Assembly: GCA_014240275.1 (NCBI GenBank)
Contig: JAAZXH010000025.1
Span: 1 to 38,482, forward strand
From: Candidatus Peregrinibacteria bacterium
GTDB taxonomy: Bacteria > Patescibacteriota > Gracilibacteria > UBA1369 > GCA-2718715
DNA: 38,482 bases
Direction: 5' to 3'
The position numbers and the translations under genes were made by a program. Shown here one piece after another: positions 7,136-38,482 of this stretch. A model generated the notes under the pieces. The model had not been told where the DNA came from. It was given only the letters and a program-made list of their open reading frames with translations, and made no database searches. Each line of letters begins with the position of its first letter. Within the stretch, counting starts at the first letter, position 1.

Positions 7136-7222
7136 TGGTGCACCAGAGAGGACTTGAACCTCCACCTTCTAACGAAGACTAGCCCCTCAAGCTAGCGCGT
7201 CTACCAATTCCGCCACTGGTGC
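7136..7222 (-). tRNA. tRNA-Leu (GAG)
   Basis: Folds as a class II tRNA with a long variable arm. The 7-bp acceptor stem is GCACCAG/CTGGTGC, followed by discriminator A and an encoded CCA. The anticodon stem CTAGC/GCTAG encloses the loop TTGAGGG, giving anticodon GAG. The T arm contains GTTCAAGTC. The CCA is genomic. A TATAAT lies upstream at 7233-7238. Confidence 0.96.
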
Positions 7223-7232
7223 AAAATGCAAA

Positions 7233-7238
7233 ATTATA
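7233..7238 (-). promoter_or_regulatory. predicted -10 box of tRNA-Leu
   Basis: Minus-strand TATAAT ending 10 bases before the tRNA 5' end. No good -35 hexamer is found at standard spacing. Confidence 0.5.
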
Positions 7239-7274
7239 GTAGACTTATATTAGTTAAAATGCAAATCCAATTTT

Positions 7275-8225
7275 ATGGGCATTCAAAGCAATCCAAATTT
7301 ATCTGATTTTCTTGATAGCTTAGCAGCTAACCTCAAAAATCCAAATCAAATTAGCCAGCTAGAAAAAACTTTTATCCACCGGCCAGCTAGCTTTCGAGTT
7401 AACACCTTAAAAGCTAAAGAGCAAGGGGTGATTAACAGTTTAGCAAAACAAAAAATTAAAGCCCACAAATGGAGGTTTCCAAATTCCTACTATATTGATT
7501 ATAAACTTACTAAAACTCTGCAAAAGACCAAAGAGTTCAAACAGGGGCTGCTTTATATGCAAAGTTTCGCATCTATGCTACCGGTTATTATTTTAGATCC
7601 AAGAGCTGGTGAAAACATCTTAGATGTAACCGCGGCCCCAGGCTCTAAAACCTCACAAATTGCGAGCCTTACTCAAAACCAAGGCAGTCTTGATGCTGTA
7701 GAGTTAGATTTTAAAAGGCATCAGCGTTTATTAAAAAACCTAAAGTTACTAAACGTAGACTTAGAGAATTACTGCCAAACCTATCAACAAAACGCTTTAC
7801 ACTTTTTAGAAAACAATCCACAGAAAACCTACGACAAAATCCTACTTGATGCACCCTGTAGCTCAAGTGCCAAAATTATATTAAACGATTCCAGTAGCTT
7901 TCAACACATTACTCCAAATTTTGTAAGTAAGTTGGCTCGATTGCAAAGCCAGCTTCTTCAGGCGGCCTTCAAGCAACTCAAACCTAAGGGGTCCTTAGTT
8001 TACTCTACCTGTAGCTTAGACCCCCTAGAAAATCATTTACTTATTAGTGATTTTCTAGCCAACGAACCAAGCGCTAAATTACAACAAGTAGCAATGCCTG
8101 CAGTTGAAGGCTTAGAATATCAACTTGAGGTACCACAGAGGGTTATAGACCAAACCTTACAGGTGATGCCGAATAAATTTATTGAAAGTTTTTACGTCGC
8201 TCATTTAACTAAAATTCATGCTTGA
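7275..8225 (+). CDS. RsmB/NOP2-family RNA m5C methyltransferase
   Basis: Probable SAM-dependent cytosine-5 methyltransferase for rRNA or tRNA. SAM motif I is LDVTAAPGSKTSQ (residues 116-128). Motif IV is DAPCSSS with Cys195, and motif VI is STCSLDPLEN with the catalytic Cys246. These are the two cysteines of the RsmB/RsmF mechanism. The N-terminal part keeps the R-x-N-T-L element (41-45). At 316 aa it is a compact form without the NusB-like domain of RsmB, nearer to RsmF/YebU-type cores, so the exact RNA target cannot be read from sequence. It overlaps the next gene by 8 bases. Confidence 0.9.
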   Translation: MGIQSNPNLSDFLDSLAANLKNPNQISQLEKTFIHRPASFRVNTLKAKEQGVINSLAKQKIKAHKWRFPNSYYIDYKLTKTLQKTKEFKQGLLYMQSFASMLPVIILDPRAGENILDVTAAPGSKTSQIASLTQNQGSLDAVELDFKRHQRLLKNLKLLNVDLENYCQTYQQNALHFLENNPQKTYDKILLDAPCSSSAKIILNDSSSFQHITPNFVSKLARLQSQLLQAAFKQLKPKGSLVYSTCSLDPLENHLLISDFLANEPSAKLQQVAMPAVEGLEYQLEVPQRVIDQTLQVMPNKFIESFYVAHLTKIHA

Positions 8226-29343: not shown

Positions 29344-29376
29344 TTGCGAGTAAACTTAAAATTGTTAATATGTCCT

Positions 29377-30117
29377 ATGCAAGATCCATTTTACTTTGAA
29401 ACACCAGTTACAACCACTCAAAATATTTTTTTTGATTCGCATTCACATATACAGTATCCTCTGGATGAAGATATATTGCAAACTATAAACAGAGCCAAAA
29501 AAGTAGGTTTGAATTACCTGATAAGTGTAGGAACTAATCTTGCAACATCCATAGACGCACTCAATCTTCATGCAAAATACCCCAAATACATCTTCCCAAC
29601 AGCTGGATTACACCCCTATGAAAGCGACAAATAATTTCAACCAATTAAAACACTTTTCGAAAAACATCCCGAGCTTGTAGCAGTGGGAGAAACAGGTTTA
29701 GATTTCTATAATTGTAAAATTCCAAAAGATATTCAAATAAATAGTTTAAGGATGCATGCTAAGCTGGCAACTAAACTTGATTTACCTATAATTTTACACC
29801 TTAGACCTTTTGAGGAATGCTTTGATTTGATTTGGCAAATTTTAGAGCAAGAGCAAGTCAAAAAAGCTATTTTTCACTGTTTTTCAGGTAGTCTAGAGTA
29901 TGCTCAAAAAATATGGGCCAAAAATTTTAAGACTTCCTTTGCCTGTAATGTAACCTATCCTAAAAACAAAGAATTACTAGAAGTTATGCAACAATGCCCT
30001 TTACAAAACCTTTTAATCGAAACCGATACCCCATACCTAGCTCCACAAGGTCTTCGAGGTCAACCCAATACCCCAGCAAATTTAGAATATTTAAAGCCTA
30101 TTTTAGACAATTTATAG
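29377..30117 (+). pseudogene. tatD: TatD-family metal-dependent nuclease, broken by one in-frame TAA
   Basis: Read through, this is a 246-residue TatD protein (plus the internal stop), close to normal length (about 255). The in-frame TAA is at 29632-29634 (codon 86), right after AGLHPYESDK, with the same frame continuing for 160 residues. All metal ligands survive across the break: HSH (22-24), GETGLD (Glu), ILHLR (His), IFHCFSG (His) and ETDTPYL (Asp). The preferred start is ATG 29377; an upstream TTG (29344) adds residues unlike the family. This is a recent nonsense change, a consensus error or readthrough. The second half alone would lack the HxH motif and should be inactive. Confidence 0.85.
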
Positions 30118-33596: not shown

Positions 33597-34064
33597 ATGA
33601 GAAATCCACAAATCCCAAAAGATGAAATTGAATCAGCATTGCAAAATGCAAATGTGCTGGGCCAAGAGCTCAAGCGTGAAACAGCCTTAGAGTCGCTGTT
33701 AAATCACGACCCCAATAAAGAGCTTAGCGCTGGAGTCCAGCGCCGCCAAGATCGGATCTAATGTCTCATGGAACTAGAAAATCCAGACCAAACAAAAGAT
33801 CTCGTCACAATTATACAAGATTTCAAAGAGCTGATGAACCTTGGGGGGAATGAGCTAAGAACCAGATATCTTACAAAACTCGAGCATCAGTACCCAGATT
33901 TTGAATTTGAATTAAAAAACGGTGATATTGATGCAACTCTAATTAACTATGAAGGTGAAACCATAGCGGAGTTCCCACCAAGCTTGGTGGAGTTGAGGAT
34001 TGAGGATTGTCCTAATTTAACCCAAGAGACTCGAGACAGAATTGAAGAATATATGAAAGCTTAG
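33597..34064 (+). pseudogene. short leucine-rich-repeat protein, interrupted by an in-frame TAA
   Basis: Read as one frame from ATG 33597, this is a 155-residue protein with a stop at codon 55 (TAA, 33759-33761). Alignment with the paralogue at 38008 shows no length change: the paralogue has AAA (Lys) at that codon. An ATG six bases after the stop (33768) opens the remaining 98 residues. The N-terminal part is HDPNKELSAGVQRRQDRI. The downstream part is the shared QENPDQTKD-like domain, KYPDFEFELKN-like segment and one LRR-like unit (FPPSLVELRIEDCPNL), then a unique tail. It may be two small working proteins, a pseudogene or a readthrough gene. It has the promoter/operator region just upstream. 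Confidence 0.7.
33705..34014 (+). repeat. direct repeat copy A (LRR gene family)
   Basis: Nucleotide-level direct repeat of 38050-38351, offset 4345 bases in its first part. It includes a 28-base identical run (33776-33803 = 38121-38148) and an 18-base one (TCCAGCGCCGCCAAGATC). One 9-base insertion (three codons) distinguishes copy A further along. Confidence 0.85.
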
Positions 34065-34077
34065 AATAAAAAGATAA

Positions 34078-34109
34078 GCACTTGACATTTTAAATAAAAA
34101 GTGCATAAT
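34078..34109 (+). promoter_or_regulatory. promoter of the VWA-MoxR operon, overlapped by an inverted repeat
   Basis: TTGACA (34082-34087), 16-base spacer, CATAAT (34104-34109). GCACTT (34078-34083) and AAGTGC (34099-34104) form an inverted repeat whose centres are 21 bases apart, two helical turns, overlapping both promoter boxes. This suggests a dimeric repressor site. The start of transcription should fall near 34116. Confidence 0.6.
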
Positions 34110-34112
34110 AAG

Positions 34113-34131
34113 AAACAAACAAACAAACAAA
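34113..34131 (+). repeat. (AAAC)n tetranucleotide tract in the VWA gene leader
   Basis: Four full AAAC units plus AAA, beginning 4 bases after the -10 box and ending 20 bases before the ATG. It sits at or just after the predicted transcription start. Confidence 0.85.
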
Positions 34132-34150
34132 GCGAATTAAACCTAAATAT

Positions 34151-36109
34151 ATGAGTATTGAAATGCCAAAACAATATGAAGAACAAAGTATAGAGGACTC
34201 TAATCAGGTTCTAAAGTCTTTGAAGACAATTTTTAGATCAGTTTATGGAAATAAAATTTCAATTGAGATTACTGATGAAGTACCATCGATGGCTTTTGAT
34301 GCAAAAAATAAAAAGATTCTCTGGGGTGTTTCATTTGCAGATTATCTTTTTAATCAGTTTCCTGATAATGGATTAGACGCTGTAATGTTTGGGGCTTTAC
34401 ACGAGGGGATGCACTACGTTGATTACCTAGACAATCCGAAGTTCTTTTTAGACAACATGCATTCAGAAAAACCAGGCTCAATTCGAGCGAATGCCAAGTT
34501 ATGGTGTAGTGAATTTACTTCAACTAGAGGGGATAAACTAAATGGTTACAGTAACAAGAAAATAGAGGAATTCTTTTTCTCAGTAATTTTTAACTTTTAC
34601 AACTGTATAGACGATATCTGGGTAAATAAGAAAGTCATCAATAGTTTTGGAAAATTTAGCACTGATAAATCAATTATATCCGACATATATAAAGTTCTTT
34701 TTTCAAGCGTAATAGATCCAAATACACATAGTATCAATGTTAATAGCTTACCACTGCATGAGCAGTTTGGGATATTCCCATTGGTATTCGCCATGCTTAA
34801 AAGACGTAGCACACAAAAGTGGACTGTTGCTGAAGAACTCAAAGTAATTTTAAAAGAAACCTTAGACGGAATCATGCAAATTACAGAGCCTCATAATAAT
34901 GCCAAAAAAAGGTATGCATATTATGGCGCAAAATTAATCCCACATTTAAAAAAGTTAATTTTTGCCCAAATCGATGAGTTAATATCTCAGATGGAAGAGA
35001 GCCAGCAAAGCGAACAAGACCAACAAGGCCAACAAGGCGAACAAGGCCAACAAGGCGAACAAGACCAGCAAAGCGAACAAGACCAACAAGGCCAACAAGG
35101 CGAACAAGGCCAACAAAGCGAACAAGGCTCAAGACAAGAAAAGCCACAACCCCTAGATGATATCTTTGGTAAGAATGATTTATCTCACCCTACCATATCT
35201 AAAGAAGAACTAGAAGAACTTTTGGCTGGAAATCCAATTGAAAACGCACAAAATGAATCCAATCAAAAAATAGAACGAGCTTTAAGTAAGTCCAATATTG
35301 GTAGGCCGAGAGTAGTCGAAGATATAGATGAAGCACGTGAATTCTATTACTCAGTTTTAAATGAAATCATTTCAACCGTACGTCAATTTTCAGAGAAACT
35401 TAGATCACAACTAGAGGGCTATTCTTCAGATATTATTATCGAAACAGAGTATCGTCATGCAGGAGCCTTAGACATTAAAGAATTAGTGAAAAGAGCGCCA
35501 CAGGTTTTTATTGGCGAAATTCCTGAAACATTACCACCTATATATAAAAGGGATTTTGAGTCAAGAGACCCAGACCAAATACCATCCATACACGTAGCAT
35601 TTGCCCTTGATTGTTCTGGGTCAATGACATGGAATATGGAGTATGTAAAAAAGTTTTTTATCTGCTTATCACGCTTATTCATTACCTATCAAACATACTT
35701 AGAGAATCCAGACGACATGCTTGTAACCTTAGTGGTTTACGATCATGAAGCTGACAAATTAATGCCAATTAAGTCTCATCTTAATATTCACGAACAATTT
35801 ATCTCAGCCTTGCCATATATTTACGCCAGGGGAGAGAATGAAGAAAACCTAGCATTCGCAAAAATTGAAGACAGTAATCATGATAAAAAGATATTAGTGT
35901 GGATTACAGACGGTGGTACCGAAGATCCTGACTCAAGTAGAGTTCATCTTGAGCCCTTAATCAATTCAGGATGGGAAATGGTGGCTATTGGAATCGGCAG
36001 TGGTTCAAACCTAGAACACTGGAGTGATTTATTTAAAGGGTATCCAGATATCAACGACTATAACACCCTTTTAGAAATTATTTATCAAGAATTAACAAAA
36101 AATATTTAA
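34151..36109 (+). CDS. metallopeptidase-like/VWA protein (DUF2201 type), partner of MoxR ATPase
   Basis: 652 aa. Residues about 20-275 look like the DUF2201 N-terminal peptidase-like domain: a zinc motif HEGMH (84-88, HExxH) followed by NCIDD (151-155), where related proteins (DUF2201, CobT-like) have an acidic third ligand. Residues 285-326 are a Gln/Gly/Glu repeat linker. Residues about 380-470 are helical and linker-like. A VWA domain begins at about 480 with MIDAS motif DCSGS (487-491) and a later WITDGGTEDPD strand. Such proteins work with MoxR AAA+ ATPases, as CobT does with CobS, in metal insertion or remodelling. The MoxR partner follows after 9 bases. The substrate is unknown. No signal peptide, so cytoplasmic. 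Confidence 0.88.
   Translation: MSIEMPKQYEEQSIEDSNQVLKSLKTIFRSVYGNKISIEITDEVPSMAFDAKNKKILWGVSFADYLFNQFPDNGLDAVMFGALHEGMHYVDYLDNPKFFLDNMHSEKPGSIRANAKLWCSEFTSTRGDKLNGYSNKKIEEFFFSVIFNFYNCIDDIWVNKKVINSFGKFSTDKSIISDIYKVLFSSVIDPNTHSINVNSLPLHEQFGIFPLVFAMLKRRSTQKWTVAEELKVILKETLDGIMQITEPHNNAKKRYAYYGAKLIPHLKKLIFAQIDELISQMEESQQSEQDQQGQQGEQGQQGEQDQQSEQDQQGQQGEQGQQSEQGSRQEKPQPLDDIFGKNDLSHPTISKEELEELLAGNPIENAQNESNQKIERALSKSNIGRPRVVEDIDEAREFYYSVLNEIISTVRQFSEKLRSQLEGYSSDIIIETEYRHAGALDIKELVKRAPQVFIGEIPETLPPIYKRDFESRDPDQIPSIHVAFALDCSGSMTWNMEYVKKFFICLSRLFITYQTYLENPDDMLVTLVVYDHEADKLMPIKSHLNIHEQFISALPYIYARGENEENLAFAKIEDSNHDKKILVWITDGGTEDPDSSRVHLEPLINSGWEMVAIGIGSGSNLEHWSDLFKGYPDINDYNTLLEIIYQELTKNI
35003..35128 (+). 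repeat. 63-bp tandem duplication of a 9-bp Gln/Gly/Glu unit
   Basis: Two 21-codon units (35003-35065 and 35066-35128) differ at only two codons near the end of the second. Each is built from 9-base subunits of the type CAA-CAA-GGC. They encode residues 285-326 of the VWA protein, a flexible linker between its two domains. Unit changes keep the frame. Confidence 0.9.
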
Positions 36110-36118
36110 TAAAATACC

Positions 36119-38011
36119 ATGCAAAACAAAAAATACACAATGGAAACGATGCCAAAGTTAGAACATACAGAGCCAAGTAGATCAGCTGATCTAGAAAGCT
36201 TATTACTACAAATGGCGGAAGATGCAGAGAGCGGAAGAGAAAGCACAATTCCAGAAGATCTATATAACGAGTATAAGACCTTTCAAGGAATCAGAGCAGC
36301 ACTGCGCTCAGTAATTGAAGACGAAGAGCAAGAAGCAACTTTACGTTTAAACTTGCACAATTATTTAGTGCATCTACCAAAAAGTAATGCAATCATATAT
36401 TTAGATAATTGCCGTCGTACGCTAAAGCAGTTGAAAAAAGCCAGAACAGAACAAGGTATAGTATTCACAGAGACACGTCAAAAAGAGATACAACAAGTAA
36501 AAGAAATCATCAAACAAGAGAAAAAGCACGTTATTCTAGAAGGAGCAACCGGTTTAGGTAAGACAGTTCTAGCCGAGCATGCAGTAAAAGAGTATTTAAA
36601 AGAGGTTGGTAAATCAGAGTCAGAAGGTTTTATTATGATTAATGCTGGTTCAGCAACATACGAACAACTATTTGGACAAATTCAAATCAAAAAAGATGAA
36701 GGCAGTGAAGTAGCAATTACAACATTTGTACCAGGGATCATATATTTAGCAGCAGAACAAGGGTTACCAGTAATCTTGGAAGAATACAACACAGTAAAAG
36801 ACGCAAGGGTGTTAAAAGGTATGCAAACACTGATGAGTGCAAATTCAAATACAAAAATCACACTTGAAAGAGGAGTGAGTATAAACGTATCAAATGGGTT
36901 CACAATGATCTTAACGGGTAATCCATTCAGTAAGGGTTCAGAAGTTATGATAGGGCTGCAAAGAGATGATGCAGCGATATCAAGTCGATGTGCAAGAATG
37001 GTAATGGATCAATTACCAGCAAATGAGCTATTACAACAGTTTTTAATATCTGAATCCTTAGTAGACGATAATTTAGGAGTAAGACTTCCCGTAGGAGTGT
37101 ATGATCAGATCTTGCAATTAATGAATTTATCAACTAAAACGTATGATAGCAAGAAAGGAAAGCTCATCTTAGATTCTCAGCAGTATGACGACTCAGGTGT
37201 ACATACACAAACGATTCAGTCTAACCTGTTATCCCAAAGGGTACTAAGCGATATACTACAAAACTGGAAGAAGAATCAATACGTAGACAGTATAGAAGAC
37301 GTAATATTGAAGGTATATTTATCTGAGTCAGCAAATGTGGAAGAGAAAGAGCAAGAATTAAAATTATTATATCTGTTATTCTGTTTAGAAGGATTTTTCT
37401 CAGACAAAAAATATCCAGAGCTTGGAGATAGCAAGTTAACACAAAAATTACAAAAGTTAATTTCAGAAATAGACTTATCTCCAATAGATAAGCGCAGGCG
37501 TTCTAATATAGAGCTTGGGCCGGTAAGCCTAATAGAAGGTTTTAATGCGATCATACAAGGAACGTTACCAAAAGAAGGTGAGCAAGAATACACAGCCTTC
37601 ACAAGAGTTTTCGAGGATTGTTTTGGTGCCAAACCAAAAACTGTAATCAGTTTAGAATCGCGAATCAATTTAGATACAGACAAAATACAATATATAATCA
37701 GTATTTTTGAATCAATATTTGCTGATGCAAATACTCAACAAATGTTTTTAAATTTAATAGGTGGGTTTAAAGTTCCAAATCATCCAAATGTTACCATTAG
37801 AGAGTTTCTAATATATATATTGCAATATAATGTTAACCCTAATTCATTAAAGGCAGAAGAATTGAAACAAGTAGATTCGATCCTACATAACGTGGAATAT
37901 TCAAATGAAATAGATTTTGAATCAGGTGAATTCGCAGAGCTTTCAGATGTTAAAAAAGCTCAAATGAGACTAATGTCATTATTTACTAGTAAGTACAACA
38001 AGCAATCATGA
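36119..38011 (+). CDS. MoxR-type AAA+ ATPase
   Basis: 630 aa. Residues about 1-115 are an acidic helical extension. The AAA+ core has Walker A GATGLGKT (142-149), Walker B VILEEYN (Glu221-Glu222, the first acidic residue being Glu rather than Asp), sensor-1-like MILTGNP, and an Arg-containing segment AAISSRCARM. This matches the MoxR/CbbQ/dynein-related AAA_5 group, whose members act with VWA proteins on target complexes. The C-terminal 250 residues are helical and unassigned, longer than most MoxR proteins. It starts 9 bases after the VWA gene, and its TGA overlaps the ATG of the downstream LRR gene. The operon is therefore VWA > MoxR > LRR. Confidence 0.9.
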   Translation: MQNKKYTMETMPKLEHTEPSRSADLESLLLQMAEDAESGRESTIPEDLYNEYKTFQGIRAALRSVIEDEEQEATLRLNLHNYLVHLPKSNAIIYLDNCRRTLKQLKKARTEQGIVFTETRQKEIQQVKEIIKQEKKHVILEGATGLGKTVLAEHAVKEYLKEVGKSESEGFIMINAGSATYEQLFGQIQIKKDEGSEVAITTFVPGIIYLAAEQGLPVILEEYNTVKDARVLKGMQTLMSANSNTKITLERGVSINVSNGFTMILTGNPFSKGSEVMIGLQRDDAAISSRCARMVMDQLPANELLQQFLISESLVDDNLGVRLPVGVYDQILQLMNLSTKTYDSKKGKLILDSQQYDDSGVHTQTIQSNLLSQRVLSDILQNWKKNQYVDSIEDVILKVYLSESANVEEKEQELKLLYLLFCLEGFFSDKKYPELGDSKLTQKLQKLISEIDLSPIDKRRRSNIELGPVSLIEGFNAIIQGTLPKEGEQEYTAFTRVFEDCFGAKPKTVISLESRINLDTDKIQYIISIFESIFADANTQQMFLNLIGGFKVPNHPNVTIREFLIYILQYNVNPNSLKAEELKQVDSILHNVEYSNEIDFESGEFAELSDVKKAQMRLMSLFTSKYNKQS

Positions 38012-38482
38012 CCATTAATCACCAAGAAATACTTAGAATGTTGGAGTCTCACGACCCCAACAAAGAGCTTAGCGCTGCTATCCAGCGCCGCCAAGATCAG
38101 ATCAAATATATTGTGGAACAAGAAAATCCAGACCAAACAAAAGATCTCATCACAATCGCACAAGATTTCAAAGACCTGATGAACTTAGATGAGAATGAGC
38201 TGAGTAATATATATCTAAGGAAAAAGTATCCAGATTTTGAATTTGAATTAAAAAACAGTGATATTTATGCAACTCTAATTAAATATGAAGGTAAAACCTT
38301 ACCCAAGTTCCCACCCGGCTTGGAGTGGTTGCGGATTAGATGTTGTCCCAAGTTAGAGATCTTACCCGAGTTGCCAACCGGCTTGGAAATATTAGACATT
38401 AGTATTTGTCACAACTTAAAGAGGTTGCCCGAATTCCCACCCGGCTTGGAAAGTTTGGAGATCAAATGGTGTGACAACTTAA
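38008..38482 (+). CDS. leucine-rich-repeat protein, 5' part only
   Basis: Open from ATG 38008 to the window end (158 residues, no stop). The N-terminal about 95 residues (HDPNKELSAAIQRRQD, later QENPDQTKD and YPDFEFELKN) are shared with the gene at 33597. Then three 21-residue repeats begin, with the pattern LPxxPxGLExLxIxxCxxLxx: LPKFPPGLEWLRIRCCPKL, LPELPTGLEILDISICHNL and LPEFPPGLESLEIKWCDNL. This is the LPX-like bacterial LRR class with Cys where Asn is usual. The ATG overlaps the MoxR stop (ATGA), so synthesis is coupled. LRRs normally bind proteins, so a recognition or adaptor role is likely but not shown. Confidence 0.88.
   Translation, partial: MTINHQEILRMLESHDPNKELSAAIQRRQDQIKYIVEQENPDQTKDLITIAQDFKDLMNLDENELSNIYLRKKYPDFEFELKNSDIYATLIKYEGKTLPKFPPGLEWLRIRCCPKLEILPELPTGLEILDISICHNLKRLPEFPPGLESLEIKWCDNL
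38050..38351 (+). repeat. direct repeat copy B (LRR gene family)
   Basis: Partner of the repeat at 33705-34014. The two copies enclose the whole VWA-MoxR pair in the same orientation. Confidence 0.85.

What the first reader, a model, noticed from the sequence alone, without database searches (positions are those of the whole stretch)
33597..38482. MoxR-VWA metallopeptidase pair flanked by and coupled to a small LRR protein family
Seen: LRR gene, VWA/HExxH gene, MoxR AAA+ gene, second LRR gene, all on one strand, the last two sharing an ATGA overlap. Known: MoxR ATPases act with VWA partners, and vWA-MoxR modules with a third component (VMAP-type ternary systems) are proposed conflict or regulatory systems. 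Inference: the LRR proteins are the recognition or adaptor part that brings targets to the ATPase/VWA machine. I know of no described system with this exact composition.
Basis: partly seen in the sequence, partly recalled or inferred. Interest (0 to 1): 0.78.

Follow-up and report, generated by a model that had tools for sequence, protein, structure and literature searches.

The report
Swappable sensor on a MoxR-vWA machine
In tiny bacteria of the Patescibacteria, an ATP-driven MoxR motor and a partner protein carrying a protease-like domain are encoded beside sensor-like proteins whose recognition part (leucine-rich repeats here) has been swapped many times between lineages, which resembles a build-your-own immune receptor that, as far as I could find, has not been described.

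Summary
The operon is real: interrupted LRR copy, HExxH-vWA protein, MoxR AAA+, second LRR gene (ATGA overlap). Corrections: the first LRR copy has an in-frame TAA (33759) and about one repeat left. The second runs off the contig, but an exact 87-nt overlap joins it to contig C19, giving 255 aa with seven 21-residue LRRs; no third copy follows there. DUF2201 was not detected.

Reading outward, the pairing is not unique to this contig. About 3% of sampled Patescibacteria genomes carry relatives of this vWA protein, usually beside MoxR; 30 of 42 long relatives keep HExxH and a sister clade has a transglutaminase-like domain instead. Genes within four places of these pairs are enriched for paralogues sharing an N-terminus (57/245 versus 10/178 farther away). 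Their C-terminal parts differ between genomes: LRR, propeller, WG, ankyrin, helical repeats, or regions hypermutated by retroelements. LRR types occur in at least four places on the vWA tree. The LRR protein is therefore most likely the exchangeable recognition part of a MoxR-peptidase-vWA machine, probably surveillance of foreign proteins; that role is inferred. It resembles MoxR-vWA ternary conflict systems, but no described third component was found.

The parts
33597..34064 (+). LRR copy 1, interrupted relic: 54 codons, in-frame TAA, then 98 codons (from ATG 33768) ending in the same C-terminal cap as copy 2; repeat array collapsed
   Evidence: 77 codons compared with copy 2: 82% nt identity, dN 0.18, dS 0.30
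33759..33761 (+). in-frame TAA that interrupts copy 1 (AAA, Lys, in copy 2)
34151..36109 (+). HExxH-vWA protein, 652 aa
34400..34414 (+). HEGMH (residues 84-88), HExxH zinc-site motif; H84, E85, H88 invariant in 15 distant members
34601..34627 (+). NxxDDIxVN motif (residues 151-159), second conserved motif of the predicted metallopeptidase domain, possible third metal ligand
   Evidence: helix in the AF2 model
34997..35140 (+). Gln/Glu/Gly low-complexity linker between peptidase-like and vWA domains (about residues 283-330)
   Evidence: low pLDDT
35594..36010 (+). vWA domain (residues 482-620) with MIDAS DxSxS at residue 487
36119..38011 (+). MoxR-clade AAA+ ATPase, 630 aa
36527..36940 (+). 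AAA_5 domain (residues 137-274), Walker A GATGLGKT
38008..38482 (+). LRR copy 2, 5' part (158 codons): helical N-terminal domain then 21-residue LRRs; ATGA overlap with the AAA gene; continues on contig C19 bases 88-380
34082..34109 (+). promoter-like site before the vWA gene (TTGACA-16-CATAAT)
   Evidence: such sites are no more frequent than in shuffles, so weak

Best explanation
The LRR protein is the interchangeable recognition subunit of a three-part cytoplasmic machine: a MoxR AAA+ ring, a co-chaperone in which a peptidase-like domain (HExxH here, transglutaminase-like in a sister clade) is joined by a flexible linker to a vWA domain, and a third protein made of a short helical N-terminal domain plus a ligand-binding solenoid. 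Proposed working: the LRR array binds a target protein; the helical domain docks the complex on MoxR/vWA; ATP hydrolysis by MoxR remodels the vWA protein; this releases or positions the peptidase-like domain to cut the captured target or a cellular substrate. Shown by sequence: the operon, the domains, conservation of HExxH and MIDAS motifs, repeated exchange of the third component between genomes, multiplication of paralogues with a shared N-terminus, and retroelement hypermutation at sister loci. Inferred: binding, docking, protease activity. Most likely role (about 0.45 on its own): surveillance of foreign proteins such as those of phages or mobile elements. The structural reading alone (the LRR protein is the recognition subunit of this machine) I hold at about 0.75.
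For: Same operon with 9-bp gap and 4-bp overlap. vWA family in 12 of 379 other phylum genomes at E<=1e-5; 14 of 14 hits in the species-genome collection have Patescibacteria-type record titles or an unnamed 'bacterium'. HExxH in 30 of 42 members, including the window; transglutaminase-like core over cut-off in all seven sister-clade members scanned. AAA profile matches midasin, NorQ and CobS. Third components beside MoxR/vWA: LRR over Pfam cut-off in the window, L052, L125 and L110; WD/propeller, ankyrin, WG, helical repeats elsewhere. Paralogues sharing an N-terminus: 57/245 near genes against 10/178 far genes, p=2.6e-7. One N-terminus serves LRR and propeller-like proteins in L125, and CLec-type and WD proteins in L024. 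On the vWA tree the Pfam-confirmed LRR label needs at least 4 changes forced by starred branches; L110 lies in a retroelement-associated clade and L129 (LRR-like) in another. Template/variable repeat pairs with 92-100% of mismatches at template A in eight loci. No transmembrane segment in the window proteins or in the third components checked.
Against: No experiment. The window's LRR N-terminal domain shows no detectable homology to other third components (profile probability under 1%); only its helical layout is similar. AF2 models are of modest confidence (mean pLDDT 61 and 62), and the fold search recovered the vWA part but no zincin among the listed matches, so the peptidase fold rests on motifs. 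The window's vWA sits on a long branch joined to another long branch. Copy 1 is broken and the C25-C19 join is inferred from one overlap. No known defence family nearby. HExxH is absent in some members.
Confidence: 0.6

Rival explanations
1. Targeted proteolysis of the cell's own (or its host cell's) proteins: LRR and other repeat proteins are substrate adaptors, like F-box LRR proteins, that feed chosen substrates to a MoxR unfoldase with an attached metallo- or cysteine-type peptidase.
For: Same parts; many adaptors per locus (L125 has about twelve); peptidase-like domain exchanged for a transglutaminase-like one.
Against: Adaptors for fixed cellular substrates should be conserved, whereas these differ by genome, are hypermutated in sister loci, and the full vWA and AAA proteins are missing from the same-family genomes searched.
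Confidence: 0.2
2. A metal-insertion or enzyme-maturation chaperone of the NorQ/NorD or CoxD/CoxE type, with LRR and other repeats as docking platforms for the enzyme being matured.
For: AAA profile matches NorQ and CobS; MoxR-vWA pairs commonly act so (PMC9976466).
Against: No reductase or cofactor enzyme gene was recognised beside the pair in the neighbourhoods read; hypermutation and module exchange do not fit a fixed client.
Confidence: 0.1
3. The LRR proteins are exported to act on the host cell on which the patescibacterium lives; the MoxR/vWA pair prepares them.
For: LRR units of LPEFPPGL type resemble IpaH/SspH-type bacterial LRRs (weak fold and family matches).
Against: No hydrophobic signal or membrane segment in the LRR-type proteins tested; other third components look like ordinary cytoplasmic repeats.
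Confidence: 0.07
4. Chance neighbours: LRR genes are decaying paralogues that happen to flank a MoxR/vWA pair.
For: Copy 1 is broken; 25 of 207 phylum genomes have LRR_4 proteins somewhere.
Against: ATGA overlap, and three further Pfam-confirmed LRR neighbours among 45 loci found without using LRR; from the background rate p is about 2e-5 to 4e-4.
Confidence: 0.05

Closest known systems
MoxR-vWA-centric ternary conflict systems (VMAP, iSTAND, FtsH, beta-propeller, later iSTAND2 and TERNS3; PMC7159879, PMC8195603)
   Same: MoxR AAA+ and vWA pair plus a further component; peptidase domains and repeat superstructures; association with diversity-generating retroelements
   Different: None of the described third components was recognised here; repeats stand in separate genes rather than on the vWA protein; the vWA protein carries an N-terminal HExxH or transglutaminase-like domain; loci found here only in Patescibacteria, for which that study's multicellularity test had no information
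DGR-diversified putative antigen sensors coupled to MoxR (PMC10907252) and CPR DGR targets with CLec fused to AAA ATPase (reported there from earlier work)
   Same: MoxR beside a variable ligand-binding domain; sister loci here have RT, Avd and A-biased TR/VR pairs
   Different: The window has no retroelement; recognition is by LRRs in a separate gene
NLR/STAND receptors (LRR, WD or TPR sensor with an NTPase; described in PMC8195603)
   Same: Exchangeable repeat sensor coupled to an NTPase and an effector domain
   Different: Not STAND; sensor, motor and effector are separate proteins
NorQ/NorD, RavA/ViaA, CoxD/CoxE chaperone pairs (PMC9976466, PMC3893208)
   Same: MoxR + vWA pair
   Different: No client enzyme gene recognised here; extra peptidase-like domain and third component

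Membership tests
MoxR-vWA pair | MoxR-clade AAA+ (Pfam AAA_5; closest solved relatives in the MoxR/midasin/chelatase group) | tested here: met
MoxR-vWA pair | adjacent vWA protein with MIDAS | tested here: met
VMAP ternary system | VMAP third component; MoxR N-terminal WxhapG and PsWRxa motifs (PMC7159879) | tested here: not met
   no gene other than LRR beside the pair between RadA and the ABC transporter; the MoxR N-terminus (residues 1-136) holds no Trp
beta-propeller ternary system | propeller fused to vWA; P-loop often GxxxTAKS; Pfam bpMoxR | tested here: not met
   window vWA has no propeller match and the P-loop is GATGLGKT; bpMoxR matched only L011, below cut-off
iSTAND / FtsH ternary systems | third component is inactive STAND NTPase or tandem FtsH | tested here: not met
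   no such gene in the operon
iSTAND2 / TERNS3 systems | third component is iSTAND2 or TERNS3 | not tested
   no models at hand; the third gene is LRR
DUF2201 (COG3864-like) metallopeptidase-vWA | Pfam DUF2201 match | tested here: not met
   none of 15 members at E<=0.1
zincin metallopeptidase | HExxH on a helix | tested here: met
   H84, E85, H88 invariant in A5; helix 74-94 in the model
zincin metallopeptidase | zincin fold and bound metal | tested here: inconclusive
   fold search listed vWA matches only; metal not testable
LRR protein | Pfam LRR over cut-off, regular repeat length | tested here: met
   PF25019 32.0 (27), PF12799 28.3 (27); spacing 21 aa
DGR-diversified system | RT, Avd, TR/VR with A-biased mismatches | tested here: not met
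   window: none; several sister loci: met
NLR/STAND receptor | STAND NTPase fused to repeats | tested here: not met
   NTPase is AAA_5 type and in another gene; nSTAND3 match is below cut-off

The most novel reading that the evidence does not exclude
Patescibacteria possess a split, NLR-like surveillance platform: a MoxR motor with a peptidase- or transglutaminase-vWA effector, to which lineages attach LRR, propeller, ankyrin, WG, helical-repeat or retroelement-hypermutated receptors, with LRR arrays exchanged for hypermutated domains more than once in evolution.
Probability: 0.4. Interest if true: 0.88.

Novelty: new variant of a known kind. Interest (0 to 1): 0.74.

Why it matters
MoxR-vWA conflict systems were described mainly in multicellular bacteria and tied to that habit; that study's habit test left out the candidate phyla for lack of information (PMC7159879). 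Here a related but different architecture occurs across reduced Patescibacteria genomes, with recognition parts exchanged between lineages and a peptidase-like domain at the effector end. It also offers an answer to a stated gap: many CPR retroelement targets have no recognisable domains (PMC8144416); at several loci here they sit beside, or appear fused to, the MoxR partner of this machine. Each part looks like a cytoplasmic protein that could be expressed and tested for assembly and proteolysis.

Tried and rejected
Close relatives of the AAA, vWA and LRR proteins were sought and not found: AAA in the species genomes, all three in IMG/VR, AAA in phages and plasmids. The wider vWA family also gave nothing in IMG/VR, phages and plasmids. 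PADLOC gave no convincing defence match. Pfam AAA_3 found nothing in the genome. The LRR N-terminal domain matched one other genome weakly (G205, L061), but its neighbours are ABC transporters, so I took it as chance. A common N-terminal adaptor family across all third components was tested by profile comparison and rejected except for L124 with L125 (94%); L052 and L056 against the Saccharibacteria propeller proteins reach only about 30% (the best negative-control match is 19%). Stop-codon recoding as an explanation for the TAA in copy 1 was rejected: TAA, TGA and TAG all end genes here. The ten-sequence vWA alignment was too diverse for the pattern scan. A promoter scan gave no more sites than shuffles.
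Full report
1. What is in the window. The finding lies at the end of a 38,482-base contig (C25) of an 851-kb, 28-contig draft genome. Four elements stand on the + strand: an LRR-type copy (33597-34064), a 652-aa vWA protein (34151-36109), a 630-aa AAA+ protein (36119-38011) and a second LRR gene from 38008 that overlaps the AAA stop by ATGA and runs off the contig. Pfam confirms VWA and AAA_5 over cut-off. The vWA protein has HEGMH at residues 84-88 and a MIDAS motif at 487, separated by a Gln-rich linker.

2. Corrections to the observation. Copy 1 is a relic: its frame is stopped by TAA at 33759, where copy 2 reads AAA, and its array has shrunk to about one repeat and the C-terminal cap. Copy 2 continues on contig C19: the last 87 bases of C25 equal the first 87 of C19, and the joined frame gives 255 aa with LRR anchors 21 residues apart. 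PF25019 and PF12799 pass their cut-offs on the joined protein. After it C19 holds an ABC transporter on the other strand. A genome-wide search finds LRR copies only at these two contig ends. The join is an inference from one overlap, and a repeat array is a likely place for an assembler to stop. TAA, TGA and TAG all end genes here, so no recoding explains the stop. The DUF2201 label was not met by any of 15 members.

3. Is the pairing unique? Close relatives are absent: 99 related genomes hold no second copy of the vWA or the LRR protein and only remote AAA matches, and species genomes, IMG/VR, phages and plasmids gave none. Remote AAA matches (24-33% identity) led to MoxR/vWA loci elsewhere in the phylum. 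A profile of five vWA proteins then found the family in 12 of 379 other phylum genomes; a broader profile found it in 14 of 258 other genomes of the window's class and 9 of 54 others of G183's class. A pattern scan of the species collection gave 14 loci, with record titles of Patescibacteria lineages (Uhrbacteria, Saccharibacteria, Falkowbacteria, Portnoybacteria, Paceibacterota, Patescibacteria group) or an unnamed bacterium.

4. The core is a family. In 15 distant members H84, E85, H88, N151, D154, D155, V158 and the MIDAS residues D487, S489, S491 are invariant at about 20% identity. Of 42 long members, 30 keep HExxH. In the other main group the region before the vWA domain carries a transglutaminase-like core over cut-off in all seven members scanned. 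The AAA profile matches midasin, NorQ and CobS among solved structures. AF2 places HExxH and the second motif on two helices of the N-terminal domain, with moderate confidence; the fold search recovered vWA structures but listed no zincin. Metallopeptidase activity is therefore predicted from motifs only.

5. The third component. Genes beside the MoxR/vWA pair repeat a pattern: a short N-terminal region followed by a recognition-type domain, often in several paralogues. LRR over Pfam cut-off: window, L052 (G183), L125 (Falkowbacteria, about twelve paralogues on both sides, one apparently split), L110 (G481, same class as the window, order vWA-AAA-LRR). LRR-like by inspection, without a Pfam match: L124, L129, L116, L056. 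Others: WD repeats L024 and propeller-like L051, L058, L120, L123, L128, L130; WG L013; ankyrin and TPR L107; helical repeats L054; retroelement-associated loci L025, L026, L028, L053, L062, L097, L100-102, L104, L121, L127. Eight retroelement loci have template/variable repeats with 92-100% of mismatches at template A. Within one locus, L125 uses the same N-terminus on LRR and propeller-like proteins, and L024 on C-lectin-type and WD proteins.

6. Tests. Paralogues sharing an N-terminus: 57 of 245 genes within four places of MoxR/vWA against 10 of 178 farther away in the same loci (Fisher p=2.6e-7; some of the far ones belong to the same arrays). Background: 25 of 207 phylum genomes have LRR_4 anywhere; three Pfam-confirmed LRR neighbours among 45 loci not chosen for LRR then has p about 2e-5 to 4e-4 under simple assumptions. 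On a vWA tree the LRR label needs at least four changes forced by well-supported branches; L110 falls in a retroelement clade with L099-L102, and L129 (LRR-like) with L025, L026, L121 and L127. The window's own branch is long and its place unsure. A single common N-terminal adaptor family was not supported: only L124 and L125 match (94%); the window's domain matches none. AF2 gives it helices and then strands near 21-residue spacing, at low confidence.

7. How it most likely works. MoxR-vWA pairs elsewhere capture a protein through the vWA domain and remodel it with ATP (summarised in PMC7159879; NorQ/NorD in PMC9976466). Adding a peptidase-like domain and an exchangeable, sometimes hypermutated recognition protein suggests a machine that recognises varied targets and acts on them. 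No signal or membrane segment was seen in the proteins checked, so the site is probably cytoplasmic. Exchange of recognition domains, hypermutation, paralogue arrays with broken members (window copy 1; L125 7200-7768) and patchy distribution are typical of conflict systems. I put the structural reading (LRR protein = recognition part of this machine) at about 0.75 and the surveillance role at about 0.45.

8. Known or new. The nearest described systems are MoxR-vWA ternary systems (PMC7159879, PMC8195603) and retroelement-diversified sensors with MoxR (PMC10907252). The third components described there were not recognised, or not testable, in the window, and the MoxR motifs of the VMAP type are absent, so it is not filed as a member of those subsystems; it works like them. 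Six literature searches found no description of LRR third components with a MoxR/peptidase-vWA pair in Patescibacteria, within the open-access library only.

9. Limits. Everything is from sequence; genomes are drafts; several loci end inside arrays; domain classes marked LRR-like or propeller-like are by eye where Pfam gave nothing. The window organism is placed only by kinship: its class contains genomes in which TGA reads through inside genes, while its own genes use TGA as a stop.

Noticed in passing
window 29344-30117: A TatD-like hydrolase frame is interrupted by a single in-frame TAA at 29632, a second case beside LRR copy 1; decay, strain variant or assembly error.
   Followed up: partly
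L026, L028, L062, L097, L100, L101, L102, L104: Patescibacterial diversity-generating retroelements beside MoxR/vWA pairs, with A-biased template/variable repeats; in L028, L062 and similar loci the variable domain appears fused to the MoxR protein itself.
   Followed up: partly
L125 648-18169: Falkowbacteria locus with about twelve paralogues (LRR and one propeller-like) around the MoxR/vWA pair, including a frame-split copy 7200-7768.
   Followed up: partly
L011, L012, L062, L100, L102, L110, L113, L114: Transglutaminase-like domain in the vWA protein in place of the HExxH domain.
   Followed up: partly
L103-L109, L111, L112: The system also occurs in genomes of the same class whose genes contain in-frame TGA, including ankyrin/TPR third components in L107.
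   Followed up: partly
L025 4646-4891 and L026 7793-7941: Runs of alternating GA/CT repeats near the start of the reverse transcriptase and Avd genes (protein runs of 'ERERER' and 'LSLSLS'); origin or function unknown.
   Followed up: no
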